Source: Bacteroidota bacterium (lineage in GTDB: Bacteria; Bacteroidota; Bacteroidia; Bacteroidales; UBA12481). From it: 64,000 nt of DNA. Of the stretch, positions 7,479 to 12,809 are shown in pieces (position 1 is the stretch's first letter; every line of letters begins with the position of its first letter). The notes below the pieces were generated by a model. That model saw only the letters and a list, made by a program, of their open reading frames with translations, was not told where the DNA came from and searched no databases. The position numbers were made by a program, and so were the translations under genes. The stretch covers positions 62,001-126,000 of the forward strand of contig JABHCC010000061.1 of the NCBI GenBank assembly GCA_018669475.1, in the 5' to 3' direction.

Positions 7479-8648
7479 ATGCTAAATATCGCATTGTTCG
7501 GACCTCCGGGTGCTGGTAAGGGAACCCAATCTCAATATCTGATAAAAAAATATAATCTGTTTTATATCTCAACCGGAGATTTATTAAGAAAGGAGATTAA
7601 AGAAAAAACCAATTTAGGAAAGGAGGCAGAGAGTATTATTGCATCAGGAGGATTAGTGCCGGATGAAATAATTGTGCAGATTATTGAAAAAACAATTACG
7701 GACAATCCGGATGCGAATGGATTTCTTTTTGATGGTTTTCCCAGAACCTATATACAGGCTTATATTTTATCCGGACTTATGATCAAGCTGAATACCAGCC
7801 TGAGTTGTCTCATCAGTCTTAATGTGCCTGAAGAAGAATCGGTTAAGCGTCTTCTTCATAGGGGTAAAACATCCGGCAGGTCAGATGACAATGAAGAGGT
7901 AATCAGAACAAGATTGAAAGAATACTATGATAAAACTCTACCGGTTATGCAGTTTTACAAAGACCGGGGCATTTTCACTGAGGCAGATGGTACCCAAAGC
8001 ATCGAGGTGGTGCAGGAGCAGATATCCTCAATTATTGATGAAGAATTGAGTAAACGTCTTTTCAATATCGTCGTTTTCGGTTATCCGGGATCAGGACGAG
8101 GATCTCAGGGTAAGGCTTTGGCAGAAAAATACGGTCTCGAATTTGTTGCCACAGGAGGGATGCTTGAGCAAGAAATCAGTAAACAAACAAGTATTGGCAA
8201 AGAAGTACAACGAATATACGATAGTGGTGAACTGGTACCCGATGAAATTGTTGTAAAATTAATTGAGCAGAGACTAGAGAACTCAAAAAACGTTAAAGGA
8301 TTTATATTCAAAGGATTTCCCAGAACTCTGGTACAATCTTACATCCTTGATGGCATGCTTAAAAAGCACGGTACAGGAATTGCAAAAATTGTGGAATTTG
8401 AAGTACCCACCCTTGAACTTATTAAGCGATTGGATAAGCGGTCGAAAACTGATCGTGGTATGCCATATGACTCAAGTACTGCAAAAATTGTAACTCGTTT
8501 ACAGGAACATGAACAGAGAACAATTCCTGTGATCAAGAAATATCAGCAAATCCACGGTACAGAAAAAATAGATGGCACCGGCAGCTTTGAAGAAGTATTT
8601 AATCGTCTTTCCTTTGCAGTTGAACATGGAATAAAAGCCATGCTTTAG
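7479..8648 (+). CDS. adk: Double-domain adenylate kinase with degenerate second half
   Basis: Adenylate kinase balances AMP, ADP and ATP. The start is ATG 7479, giving MLNIALFGPPGAGKGTQ. Residues 1-190 are a complete short-lid enzyme: Walker A G8-PPGAG-K14, the AMP-site motif STGDLLR, FDGFPRT and a lid with RGKTSGRSDD. Residues 196-389 are a second copy of the fold. In that copy the Walker lysine is arginine (GYPGSGR207GS), STGDLLR has become ATGGMLE, and FDGFPRT has become FKGFPRT. The second half therefore looks catalytically impaired and may be structural or regulatory. The ordinary bacterial enzyme is a single domain of about 190-215 residues. No frameshift is seen between the halves. Confidence 0.9.
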   Translation: MLNIALFGPPGAGKGTQSQYLIKKYNLFYISTGDLLRKEIKEKTNLGKEAESIIASGGLVPDEIIVQIIEKTITDNPDANGFLFDGFPRTYIQAYILSGLMIKLNTSLSCLISLNVPEEESVKRLLHRGKTSGRSDDNEEVIRTRLKEYYDKTLPVMQFYKDRGIFTEADGTQSIEVVQEQISSIIDEELSKRLFNIVVFGYPGSGRGSQGKALAEKYGLEFVATGGMLEQEISKQTSIGKEVQRIYDSGELVPDEIVVKLIEQRLENSKNVKGFIFKGFPRTLVQSYILDGMLKKHGTGIAKIVEFEVPTLELIKRLDKRSKTDRGMPYDSSTAKIVTRLQEHEQRTIPVIKKYQQIHGTEKIDGTGSFEEVFNRLSFAVEHGIKAML

Positions 8649-8743
8649 CCAGAGGAATAAGTTCTACAACTCTGAATTTGAAAATTGGCTATTCCTTCCT
8701 CAATCATCTTATTCGCTGTCACATAATGGCAATCATAATACTT

Positions 8744-10318
8744 ATGCAAAGACAAATCACAAAGCTTATTGTTCTGTTTATTCTTGTAAGCACTGCCCTC
8801 AGCTGTGCCAACAAAAGAGAAAATAAAACAGAAAAACCGAACATTTTGTACATCATGTCTGATGATCATACCTCGCAGGCCTGGGGTATCTATGGTGGCA
8901 TTCTCAAAGATTATGTTCATACACCTGCAATCAGCCGTCTGGCTGAGGAAGGGTGCGTACTGGATAATTGTCTGGTGTCGAACTCAATTTGTGTTCCGAG
9001 CAGGGCATCAATCCTCACAGGATTGTACAGTCATAAATCAGGAGTTAAAACCTTAGGTGGAAAACTGAATCCGGCAGAAGAAAACATTGCTAAAGTATTG
9101 CAAGGAGGGGGCTATCAAACAGCCATTTTTGGGAAATGGCATCTCAAATTAGAGCCTGCAGGCTTTGACTATTATTGTGTATTGCCCGGACAAGGAAACT
9201 ATTGGGATCCGCATATGAAAACCAAAGAGAATTGGGAAGATGGGGGCAAAGGAGGGAAACAATACTATGGTTTCAGTACTGATATAATTGCGAATATGAC
9301 TATTGAATGGATTGAAAACAGGGATTCTGAAAAACCATTTTTCGCCATGTGTCATTTCAAAGCCACACATGAACCATTTGATTATCCCGATCGCTTTAAA
9401 AATCTTTATCTGGATATTGAAATCCCGTATCCTGCCACTCTCCTTGATCAGGGTCCTGAAACTAATGGAAGAACTTTTAAAGGACAATCAATGGATAATC
9501 TTAAGCAACGCTACCTGAACGCTACAGAAACTGAGGTATTGAGCCGAAAAGGTCACACTAAATATCCTGGTTTACCTTTTTCTGTTGAAGGTCTAGATAA
9601 TACGGAAGCACGAAAGAAAACCTATCAGAAGTTCATAAAAGATTTTATGAGGTGTGGGGCCGCTATTGATGACAATATTGATAAGTTGCTTAATTACATC
9701 GAGGAGGCTGGTTTGGACGAAAACACCCTTGTAATCTACACAGCTGACCAGGGTTACTTTCTGGGTGAACATGGTTGGTTTGATAAACGTATGATTTACG
9801 AAGAGTCTGCTCATATGCCTTTCATTATTCGATATCCGAAAGAGATTCCTGCCGGAAGCCGGAATTCAGATATCATTGAAAATGTCGATTTCTCAGCCCT
9901 TTTTGCTGATTATGCTGGTGTTGAATACCCTGAAACTATGCAAGGATTCAGTTTTCGCGAGAATGTGAATGGAAATACTGCAGCTGATTGGCGCAAATAT
10001 GGATATTACAGGTACTGGGCCCATTCGAAAGACCGGCCAGGCCATTTTGGCATTCGGGGTGATCGATATAAACTGGCCTTTTATTATGGTAATGGATTAA
10101 AAGCCAACGATTATTCTGCGACGGCAAATATTCTTTACTGGGAATTTTTCGATCTTCAGGAAGACCCCGATGAACTTCATAATGCCTATCATGATCCCGG
10201 CAATAAGGAATTGATTTCTGAGCTTAAACAAGAAATCATCCGGCAGCGAAAAATGCTCGGTGATACTGACAAGGACAACCCTGAGATTCTCAAAATAATT
10301 GAAGCACACTGGGATTAA
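8744..10318 (+). CDS. Sulfatase (iduronate-2-sulfatase/arylsulfatase type), lipoprotein
   Basis: Hydrolyses sulfate esters, probably on glycans. The start at ATG 8744 gives a lipoprotein signal with lipobox ALSC. The formylglycine motif is C83-V-P-S-R, followed by ASILTGLYSHKSG. The metal-binding start PNILYIMSDDHT and the TADQGYFLGEHGWFDKR motif are intact. The C-terminus (DLQEDPDELHN) is typical of the S1 sulfatase family. A formylglycine-generating enzyme would have to be encoded elsewhere. The neighbours are not glycan genes; the second sulfatase lies at 37.2 kb. Confidence 0.92.
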   Translation: MQRQITKLIVLFILVSTALSCANKRENKTEKPNILYIMSDDHTSQAWGIYGGILKDYVHTPAISRLAEEGCVLDNCLVSNSICVPSRASILTGLYSHKSGVKTLGGKLNPAEENIAKVLQGGGYQTAIFGKWHLKLEPAGFDYYCVLPGQGNYWDPHMKTKENWEDGGKGGKQYYGFSTDIIANMTIEWIENRDSEKPFFAMCHFKATHEPFDYPDRFKNLYLDIEIPYPATLLDQGPETNGRTFKGQSMDNLKQRYLNATETEVLSRKGHTKYPGLPFSVEGLDNTEARKKTYQKFIKDFMRCGAAIDDNIDKLLNYIEEAGLDENTLVIYTADQGYFLGEHGWFDKRMIYEESAHMPFIIRYPKEIPAGSRNSDIIENVDFSALFADYAGVEYPETMQGFSFRENVNGNTAADWRKYGYYRYWAHSKDRPGHFGIRGDRYKLAFYYGNGLKANDYSATANILYWEFFDLQEDPDELHNAYHDPGNKELISELKQEIIRQRKMLGDTDKDNPEILKIIEAHWD

Positions 10319-10406: not shown

Positions 10407-12809
10407 ATGAAACAGATTAAAAATATTCTTGCCCTGGGTATAGCCCTTTTGATCTCTTCAGGTCTTTCAGCCCAACTCCCTGGTATTGAAGAGAAAACTA
10501 AAGGAATGGACAAGTATTCAGGTTTCTTTACATTCTATTGGGACAATACCAAAGGTAAAATCTGGCTTGAAATCGATAAGTTAAACGAGGAGATCCTATA
10601 CCTTAACTCAGTCTCAGGTGGGCTAAGCACCAGCGGCATCGACCGCAACAGTCTTGGTCAAAGTAAGATAGTTGAATTTCAACGAATAGGTCCAAAAGTA
10701 ATAATGATACAACCCAATTATTCTTTCAGAGCCAATACCGAAAATGAATTTGTACTTGAAGCAGTTGAAAACGCTTTTGGTCGATCTATTATATGGGGAT
10801 TTGAAGTTGCTGCTGAACAGGGTGAAAAGATCTTAGTTGATGCAACTAAATTCCTATTGAGAGACGCCCGTGCCTGGGGAGATAATATGGGGGGCAGAAA
10901 CAGTACAACAAAATATCGCTTCGATGAATCCAAATCAGCCTTTGATCTCTCTCACACCAAGAACTTTCCGAATAATTCTGAATTCGATGTTATGTTGACC
11001 TTCACAGGTAAAGGATTCAGGGGTAAAGAGGCCCCGAGCTCTGAAGCTATTACAGTTAAACTGCATCATTCCCTGGTGCAATTGCCTGACGATCAATACA
11101 AGCCTCGAAAATATGATCCACGCTCAAGCTTCATGAGTTTCTCTTATAATGATTATGCCAGCCCTTTTGATGAGGATATTGAACAGAAATTTATTCTACG
11201 GCACCGTTTAGAAAAGAGAAATCCTAAGGCTGAAATCAGCGAGGCTATCGAACCTATCATTTATTATGTTGACAGAGGTATTCCGGCCGATATTATGGAT
11301 GCGGTGGTCGAAGGTGCAAAATGGTGGAATCATGCTTATGAAGCCTGTGGTTATAATAATGCCTTCCAGGTAAAGCTCCTGCCGGATGGTGTCGATCCCA
11401 TGGATATAAGATATAATATGATCAATTGGATCAATCGGGCAAAAAGAGGATGGTCATACGGAAGTACAATATCGGATCCCCGGACAGGTGAAATTATTAA
11501 AGGGAATGTATCTATGGGTGCTCTTCGCATCCGGCAGGCCTACCTGATCGCATGCGGTATTGCGGGTGAATATTCACAATCTGATCAAATTGATCCCCAA
11601 ATGAAAAAGATGGCCCTTCTTCGGATCAAACAACTCTCTGCTCATGAGGTTGGACATACAATTGGTCTCGTTCATAATTATGCTGCAAATGTGGATGATA
11701 GGTCTTCTGTAATGGATTATCCACATTCACTTGCCACAATCAGGAATGACGGGAGCATTGATCTGTCAAAAGCCTATACCGAGGATATTGGTGCCTGGGA
11801 CAAGGTATCTGTAGCATATGGATATCAGGATTTCCCTGATAATCAGGATGCAGATGCAGAAGCTAAGAAAGAACTTGATAAGGCATTTGTTAAGGGGATA
11901 TATTACCTTACGGATAAGGACGCTGGGGCCAATATCCACCCTCTGGCCAGTCAGTGGGATAATGGAAAACACCCGGTAGATGAGTTAGAACGTGTAATGA
12001 AAATCAGAAAAATTGCACTTGACAACTTTTCTGAAAAGAAAATTAGGTATGGGAAAGCAATGTCGACCCTTGAAGATGTGCTGGTGCCAGTCTATTTTTA
12101 TCATCGATACCAGATTACTGCTTCGGCAGGAGTTCTGGGTGGATTATATTACAACCATGCTTTGCGCGGGGGACCTCAATATATTCAAAGAAATGTGCCA
12201 GCCGAGGAGCAAAGACGGGCTCTGAATGTATTAATCAAAACATTGGAGCCAGAAAATCTGCTTATTGATGAAAAGATATTGAATTTGATTCCCCCCAGAG
12301 CTCCAGGACATAATCAGACTAATGATTTATTCACCAGTTATACCGGCGGAACTTTCGATCCATTGGCTGCCGCAGAAAATGTGGCCGATCTAAGTGTAGG
12401 ATTGATTCTAAATCCTGCGCGTGCAGCCCGATTAGTCAATTACCACGCTCTGAAACAGGAATTACCTGGCTTAGAAGAAGTAATCGAAACACTTTTGACT
12501 ACTATCTTTAAAAAGCAAGTCGAAAACCCCTATGAGCAAGAAATACAAAGAGTAGTTAATCTGGCTATTTTAAATCGCTTAATGGCCCTGGCGGCTGACT
12601 CAAAAACGTCTCCACAATCAAAGGCTCTTGCTTTCCTCAAACTGAAGGATCTGGATGTTTGGCTCAAAGCTCAGAAACCTGAAGACACAGCTCAGAAAGC
12701 ACACTACCTGTTCTGCAGACTAAGAATAAAGCAGTTTGAGAGAAATCCCGATTCTTTTAAGATTAGCTCCGTAATTAAAATACCTAACGGAGCCCCTATT
12801 GGAAATTAA
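10407..12809 (+). CDS. Zinc-dependent metalloprotease (DUF5117/DUF5118 family)
   Basis: An 800-residue secreted protein with signal peptide MKQIKNILALGIALLISSG. The zinc-binding site is H413EVGHTIGLVH, an extended HExxHxxGxxH metzincin-type motif. The N-terminal 100 residues (FFTFYWDNTKGKIWLEI) and the following block match the DUF5117/DUF5118 architecture of large Bacteroidota metalloproteases. Physiological substrates are unknown; periplasmic or surface proteolysis is the likely role. It lies about 90 nt after the sulfatase and is convergent with the lipoprotein gene at 12822. Confidence 0.88.
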   Translation: MKQIKNILALGIALLISSGLSAQLPGIEEKTKGMDKYSGFFTFYWDNTKGKIWLEIDKLNEEILYLNSVSGGLSTSGIDRNSLGQSKIVEFQRIGPKVIMIQPNYSFRANTENEFVLEAVENAFGRSIIWGFEVAAEQGEKILVDATKFLLRDARAWGDNMGGRNSTTKYRFDESKSAFDLSHTKNFPNNSEFDVMLTFTGKGFRGKEAPSSEAITVKLHHSLVQLPDDQYKPRKYDPRSSFMSFSYNDYASPFDEDIEQKFILRHRLEKRNPKAEISEAIEPIIYYVDRGIPADIMDAVVEGAKWWNHAYEACGYNNAFQVKLLPDGVDPMDIRYNMINWINRAKRGWSYGSTISDPRTGEIIKGNVSMGALRIRQAYLIACGIAGEYSQSDQIDPQMKKMALLRIKQLSAHEVGHTIGLVHNYAANVDDRSSVMDYPHSLATIRNDGSIDLSKAYTEDIGAWDKVSVAYGYQDFPDNQDADAEAKKELDKAFVKGIYYLTDKDAGANIHPLASQWDNGKHPVDELERVMKIRKIALDNFSEKKIRYGKAMSTLEDVLVPVYFYHRYQITASAGVLGGLYYNHALRGGPQYIQRNVPAEEQRRALNVLIKTLEPENLLIDEKILNLIPPRAPGHNQTNDLFTSYTGGTFDPLAAAENVADLSVGLILNPARAARLVNYHALKQELPGLEEVIETLLTTIFKKQVENPYEQEIQRVVNLAILNRLMALAADSKTSPQSKALAFLKLKDLDVWLKAQKPEDTAQKAHYLFCRLRIKQFERNPDSFKISSVIKIPNGAPIGN

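What the first reader, a model, noticed from the sequence alone, without database searches (positions are those of the whole stretch)
7479..8648. Tandem adenylate kinase with a decayed second active site
The gene fuses two adenylate kinase domains. The second has Arg for the Walker A lysine (R207), loses the AMP-site arginine (STGDLLR to ATGGMLE) and the Asp of FDGFPRT, yet keeps the fold and GFPRT. This looks like a pseudoenzyme half that could bind nucleotides and regulate the active half.
Basis: partly seen in the sequence, partly recalled or inferred. Interest (0 to 1): 0.6.

Follow-up and report, generated by a model that had tools for sequence, protein, structure and literature searches.

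The report
Adenylate kinase fused to inactive twin
This bacterial gene joins a normal adenylate kinase to a second copy whose active site looks rewired rather than simply ruined, and the same fused protein is preserved in scattered bacteria of several phyla, which suggests that the second copy has a job of its own, perhaps sensing nucleotides.

Summary
Window 7479-8648 (+) encodes 389 aa with two adenylate kinase (ADK) domains; the second has Arg for the Walker A Lys, Lys for the Asp of DGFPR, and no AMP-site Arg. "Decayed" is misleading. The tandem is a conserved family, sparse in Bacteroidota, Spirochaetota and Calditrichota. First and second halves form sister clades: one internal duplication. 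Asp84 (E. coli numbering) is Lys in 32 of 32 second halves, Asp in 32 of 32 first halves and 23 of 23 single-domain sequences. In the window's subtype the Walker Lys is Arg in 24 of 24, while Arg88, Arg119, Arg123, Arg167 and Gln92 stay. Six close pairs of relatives show strong purifying selection on half 2 (dN/dS 0.02-0.07). The window's genome also has a normal adk; 6 of 25 tandem genomes showed no other ADK. One variant sits at the hpt-adk-obgE locus itself. Best reading: an active kinase fused to a non-catalytic, probably nucleotide-binding domain that tunes or stabilises it. Binding and regulation are inferred, not shown.

The parts
7479..8648 (+). tandem adenylate kinase gene, 389 aa
   Evidence: ATG 7479 agrees with the MLNIALFG start seen in most rows of the alignment
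7479..8051 (+). half 1: ADK domain with the catalytic residues checked all present (K14, R37, D85, R89, Q93, R124, R128, R134, D136, D137, R145)
8052..8645 (+). half 2: ADK-fold domain with conserved substitutions (among them Y202, S205, R207, K278) and positions free to vary (230, 327, 332)
   Evidence: model residues 194-386 align to solved ADKs
8079..8102 (+). altered P-loop of half 2, GYPGSGRG (residues 201-208), R207 for the Walker A Lys
8307..8327 (+). FKGFPRT (residues 277-283), K278 for the Asp of FDGFPRT

Best explanation
The gene encodes one chain made of an active short-LID adenylate kinase (half 1) joined almost without linker to a duplicated ADK domain that has lost normal catalysis (half 2). 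Half 2 keeps most phosphate-binding arginines, but puts a Lys where the Mg-site Asp stood and, in this subtype, an Arg for the Walker Lys. Most likely half 2 holds a nucleotide without Mg and without turning it over, and its occupied or closed state changes the activity or stability of half 1, as a built-in energy-state sensor. Shown: the domains, their separate sister clades, constant substitutions, purifying selection in relatives, patchy spread. Inferred: activity of half 1, loss of catalysis in half 2. Speculative: Mg-free binding, and allosteric control of half 1.
For: Half 1 has the standard residue at K13, R36, D84, R88, Q92, R119, R123, R156, D158, D159 and R167 in 32 of 32 rows; half 2 has K for D84 in 32 of 32, and R for K13 in 24 of 24 type A rows, with R88, R119, R123, R167 and Q92 in 24 of 24 and T31 in 23 of 24. 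Half 2 omega is 0.023-0.068 in the 6 of 11 pairs where it could be computed. h1 and h2 are each one clade (100/97, 100/99) and together one clade (99/89). AF2 gives both halves the ADK fold (mean pLDDT 87.5), with four residues (192-195) between the last helix of half 1 and the first strand of half 2. Lys13 to Gln is stated to be inactive, and Arg123, Arg156 and Arg167 to bind ATP phosphates, in passages of PMC4325324 and PMC3369945. Six of 25 tandem genomes showed no other ADK, so a half must be active there if those assemblies are complete.
Against: No biochemistry exists here. Half 2 is less conserved than half 1: mean pairwise identity 0.661 against 0.732, h2 the more alike in only 15 of 253 type A pairs. 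The AMP-site position 230 is free to vary, so a normal AMP site is unlikely. Type A has no gene neighbourhood shared beyond close relatives, so no pathway is pointed to. pTM is 0.69, so the relative placement of the halves is unsure. The role of D84 in Mg coordination is recalled, not read. The omega pairs come from only two groups of close relatives, three type A and three type B genes.
Confidence: 0.5

Rival explanations
1. Half 2 is a structural partner only: it stabilises half 1 or mediates assembly, and binds no ligand.
For: The halves abut with four residues between helix and strand; the AMP-site Arg position is free to vary.
Against: Q92, R88, R119, R123 and R167 are kept in 24 of 24 type A second halves and K278 in 32 of 32 of all types; a mere scaffold would not need a conserved set of phosphate-site residues.
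Confidence: 0.22
2. Half 2 is still a kinase, with changed substrate or metal use, Lys278 standing in for the metal site.
For: Type B second halves keep the Walker Lys and the AMP-site Arg, 5 of 5; selection is strong in the pairs measured.
Against: Type A has changed K13, D84, R36 and R156 together, and Lys13 to Gln alone is stated to inactivate the enzyme (passage in PMC4325324). Four of 5 type B second halves have Ser for R88.
Confidence: 0.2
3. Half 2 is a decaying relic carried along by an active half 1.
For: A normal adk exists in this genome; half 2 evolves faster than half 1.
Against: Omega 0.023-0.068 in half 2 of the six pairs measured, and the replaced residues are constant across the rows compared.
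Confidence: 0.05

Closest known systems
Bacterial short-LID adenylate kinase (NCBIfam NF001381, PRK00279.1-3; solved 8pvw, 3cm0)
   Same: Half 1 has the fold and the catalytic residues checked; the whole chain scores 390.4 bits against a cut-off of 187, in two stretches.
   Different: Those are single domains (8pvw 187, 3cm0 186 residues); the tandem form and the altered second site are not part of them.
Eukaryotic tandem adenylate kinases AK5 and AK8
   Same: Two ADK domains in one chain; an axonemal chain of 475 residues from bovine sperm is the second-ranked Foldseek hit, though at rmsd 16.6.
   Different: AK8, like AK5, is described as having two complete and active domains (passage in PMC10056885); the bacterial second half is altered. 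That the bovine chain is AK8 is recalled.
Long-LID tandem ADK in the same Calditrichota genome (L040/L075, G403)
   Same: Two ADK domains in one bacterial chain.
   Different: Both halves keep DGFPRT and fall outside the h1+h2 clade, so it looks like an independent fusion.

Membership tests
adenylate kinase (PF00406), half 1 | profile match over the curated cut-off | tested here: met
   165.9 bits against 26.8
adenylate kinase (PF00406), half 1 | catalytic residues K13, R36, D84, R88, R119, R123, R156, D158, D159, R167 | tested here: met
   present in 32 of 32 first halves, the window's included
adenylate kinase (PF00406), half 2 | profile match over the curated cut-off | tested here: met
   135.9 bits against 26.8; homologous domain
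catalytically active adenylate kinase, half 2 | Walker A Lys and Asp of DGFPR | tested here: not met
   R207 and K278
catalytically active adenylate kinase, half 2 | AMP-site Arg (R36) and LID Arg (R156) | tested here: not met
   position 230 is E and varies; the LID Arg column is G in the window and not conserved, with an uncertain alignment there
regulatory pseudoenzyme | conserved fold under purifying selection with lost catalytic residues | tested here: met
   selection measured on relatives only
regulatory pseudoenzyme | measured loss of activity, ligand binding, effect on the partner domain | not testable with these tools
   needs protein biochemistry

The most novel reading that the evidence does not exclude
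A bacterial adenylate kinase family with a built-in, Mg-independent nucleotide-sensing pseudo-domain: a Lys fixed in place of the Mg-site Asp lets half 2 read free (metal-less) ADP or ATP and gate half 1, an energy-charge regulator inside an enzyme usually thought of as unregulated.
Probability: 0.2. Interest if true: 0.8.

Novelty: new variant of a known kind. Interest (0 to 1): 0.55.

Why it matters
Adenylate kinase is a textbook enzyme and a standard model of enzyme dynamics, nearly always studied as a free-standing domain. A family in which duplication was followed by a charge-reversed second site, sometimes apparently as the cell's only ADK, would give a natural case of pseudoenzyme evolution in which single-domain relatives, the active half and the altered half can be compared directly.

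Tried and rejected
Relaxed selection or pseudogene: not borne out. Assembly artefact or frameshift joining two genes: rejected, since the same fused frame occurs in relatives titled as several phyla. Recent duplication of the genome's own adk: rejected; the best identity of window half 1 to any of 23 single-domain sequences is 0.47, of half 2 0.42, and h1+h2 is a clade of its own. Function from gene neighbours: 31 loci compared, the tandem found by my ORF picker in 30 (missed in L119); type A shares neighbours only within close groups (such as L004-L007, L013/L014, L012/L120), and L016 has a phosphoribosyltransferase-like gene a few genes away. Mobile carriage: matches to half 2 are under 60% identity in 17 of 17 phage and 216 of 216 plasmid records; best listed 36.1% and 37.2%; I did not look in those records for a tandem. 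Of 15 Bacteroidota genomes with the FKG[FY]P[RS]T DNA pattern, 7 are not ADK at the hit when read in frame. No reliable structural evidence on how the halves face each other (pTM 0.69).

Papers: searches listed nothing on a bacterial tandem ADK with an inactive half. I saw listings only, and only 10 of 354 papers, 10 of 20; most subscription papers are not held. Of PMC3369945, PMC4325324 and PMC10056885 I saw passages only. No paper was found on the Mg role of D84; it is recalled. E. coli residue names were assigned by my alignment and recall.

Rows dropped before counts: L010 (contains a masked stretch that reads N) from the tree and tables; L009 half 1 and L018 half 2 (cut by contig ends); L019 was not joined to L018; duplicates of one gene fetched twice were kept once; the single adk of G389 (L086) was not caught by my motif filter and is not in tree or tables. 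In one search only 8 candidates were scored in many genomes, so a weak match may be missed. As a check, type B and C second halves score 204-234 bits with the same alignment, above every single ADK (at most 165) and first half (at most 181) in my set, so the cut used would have passed them.

Full report
Observation. The frame at 7479-8648 (+) is open, starts with ATG and encodes 389 residues. Pfam ADK (PF00406) matches both halves: 165.9 and 135.9 bits against a cut-off of 26.8.

Another adk. The window lies in a 5.56 Mb assembly of 215 contigs, 95.4% complete. It holds one more ADK, in a 195-residue frame on contig C59 with the standard motifs. Judged by eye from their sequences, its neighbours are a phosphoribosyltransferase (hpt-like) upstream and an ObgE-like GTPase downstream. 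An annotated Bacteroides finegoldii record shows the same order hpt, adenylate kinase, obgE.

Family. A scan of genome contigs with half 2 gave 21 loci. Of these, 16 match at 62-74% identity, two of them (L018, L019) fragments at contig ends of one assembly; the other five are ordinary single ADKs at 36-43%. Titles name Bacteroidales, Bacteroidota, Ignavibacteriae, Calditrichaeota and Spirochaetes among others; these are MAG titles and may be wrong (L018/L019 are titled Chitinophaga pinensis). In whole genomes a window-type tandem is in 8 of 395 sampled from the window's phylum, 2 of 149 in the phylum of G404 including G404 itself, and 2 of 82 in the phylum of G403 including G403; a further one of those 82, G582, has a more divergent tandem. 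The spread is patchy and fits transfer between phyla or many losses; I did not test which.

Subtypes. Some genomes have further tandems. Type A (the window's) has R for the Walker Lys. Type B (L068-L071, and L072 as a variant) keeps GPPGAGKGTQ and the AMP-lid Arg but has KGFPST, or KGFPRT in L072. Type C (L073, L074) has GYPGSGKTTQ or GHPGAGMTTQ with KGYPRT; I grouped G582's L111 (GYPGAGRG, KGFPRT) with it only for counting. The feature shared by all second halves tabulated is Lys for Asp84: 32 of 32, against Asp in 32 of 32 first halves and 23 of 23 single-domain sequences (the 23 include the two halves of an unrelated long-LID tandem). So Lys for Asp most simply came first and the loss of the Walker Lys later.

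Origin. A tree of 81 rows puts all 29 first halves in one clade (100/97), all 29 second halves in another (100/99), and the two together (99/89) apart from the 23 single-domain sequences. The bootstrap had not fully settled and the root is a midpoint. The simplest account is one internal duplication. L072 sits between the hpt-like gene and obgE, and L068, L070 and L071 beside the same kind of hpt-like gene, so the duplication may have arisen in place at the hpt-adk-obgE locus. Type A copies share neighbours only among close relatives.

Selection. Nei-Gojobori omega was tried on 11 pairs of relatives. In the 6 usable for both halves, half 1 gives 0.026-0.067 and half 2 0.023-0.068; in the other 5, dS of half 2 was saturated. 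The six come from three type A genes (L004-L006, half 2 0.023-0.031) and three type B genes (L068-L070, half 2 0.032-0.068); the window's gene is in none. Against my reading, half 2 is less conserved overall: mean identity 0.661 against 0.732 over 253 type A pairs, half 2 the more alike in only 15. Eleven positions are at least 95% one residue in each half but differ between halves; they include P9/Y202, A12/S205, K14/R207 and D85/K278. Three positions conserved in half 1 and in single ADKs are free in half 2: those of R36, R156 and D159. Thus the site looks rewired at some positions and released at others.

Is the tandem ever the only ADK? Of 22 tandem genomes, 6 show no single-domain ADK: G196, G404 and G405 (one type A each), G407 (two type A), G395 (A and B) and G399 (A and L072 type). 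Three further tandem genomes each had another ADK match, so 6 of 25. Of the six only G196 has a stated completeness (100%, about 40 contigs); G389 of the same genus does have a single adk, so an assembly gap cannot be excluded.

Structure. AF2 on 15 sequences, two of them partial: mean pLDDT 87.5, pTM 0.69. Both halves align to solved ADKs (Z about 22-26 in the rows listed). The placement of the halves is not reliable at this pTM.

Mechanism. Half 1 is taken as the working kinase because it has the catalytic residues checked and would have to serve where the tandem is the only ADK. Half 2 lacks the Walker Lys, whose change to Gln is stated to inactivate ADK (passage of PMC4325324), and the Asp that by established knowledge (recalled) helps place Mg. 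It keeps R123 and R167, named among the arginines that bind ATP phosphates, and R119, whose backbone binds the ATP ribose (passage of PMC3369945). A Lys at the Mg site plus retained arginines suggests non-catalytic binding of a metal-free nucleotide. That this regulates half 1 is the preferred but untested step.

Verdict. It is a new variant of a known kind: I found no description of it in the searches listed under Tried and rejected.

Noticed in passing
L040, 510-aa frame (G403:C14); G625:C128, 473-aa frame: A separate tandem of long-LID adenylate kinases in one Calditrichota genome, both halves with DGFPRT; G625 has a similar double match in one 473-aa frame.
   Followed up: partly
L072 4018-6809: A variant tandem ADK occupies the hpt-adk-obgE slot, with no single-domain ADK found in that genome.
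   Followed up: yes
G407 (L017, L077); G406 (L015, L046): Two distinct window-type tandem ADKs in one genome.
   Followed up: partly
L031, L032: Window-type tandems of one genus with an insertion of about eight residues in half 2 and GYPGSGRS at the P-loop.
   Followed up: no
window 8726-10315 and 10407-12806: Downstream genes look by eye like a sulfatase and a zinc-dependent peptidase; not searched.
   Followed up: no
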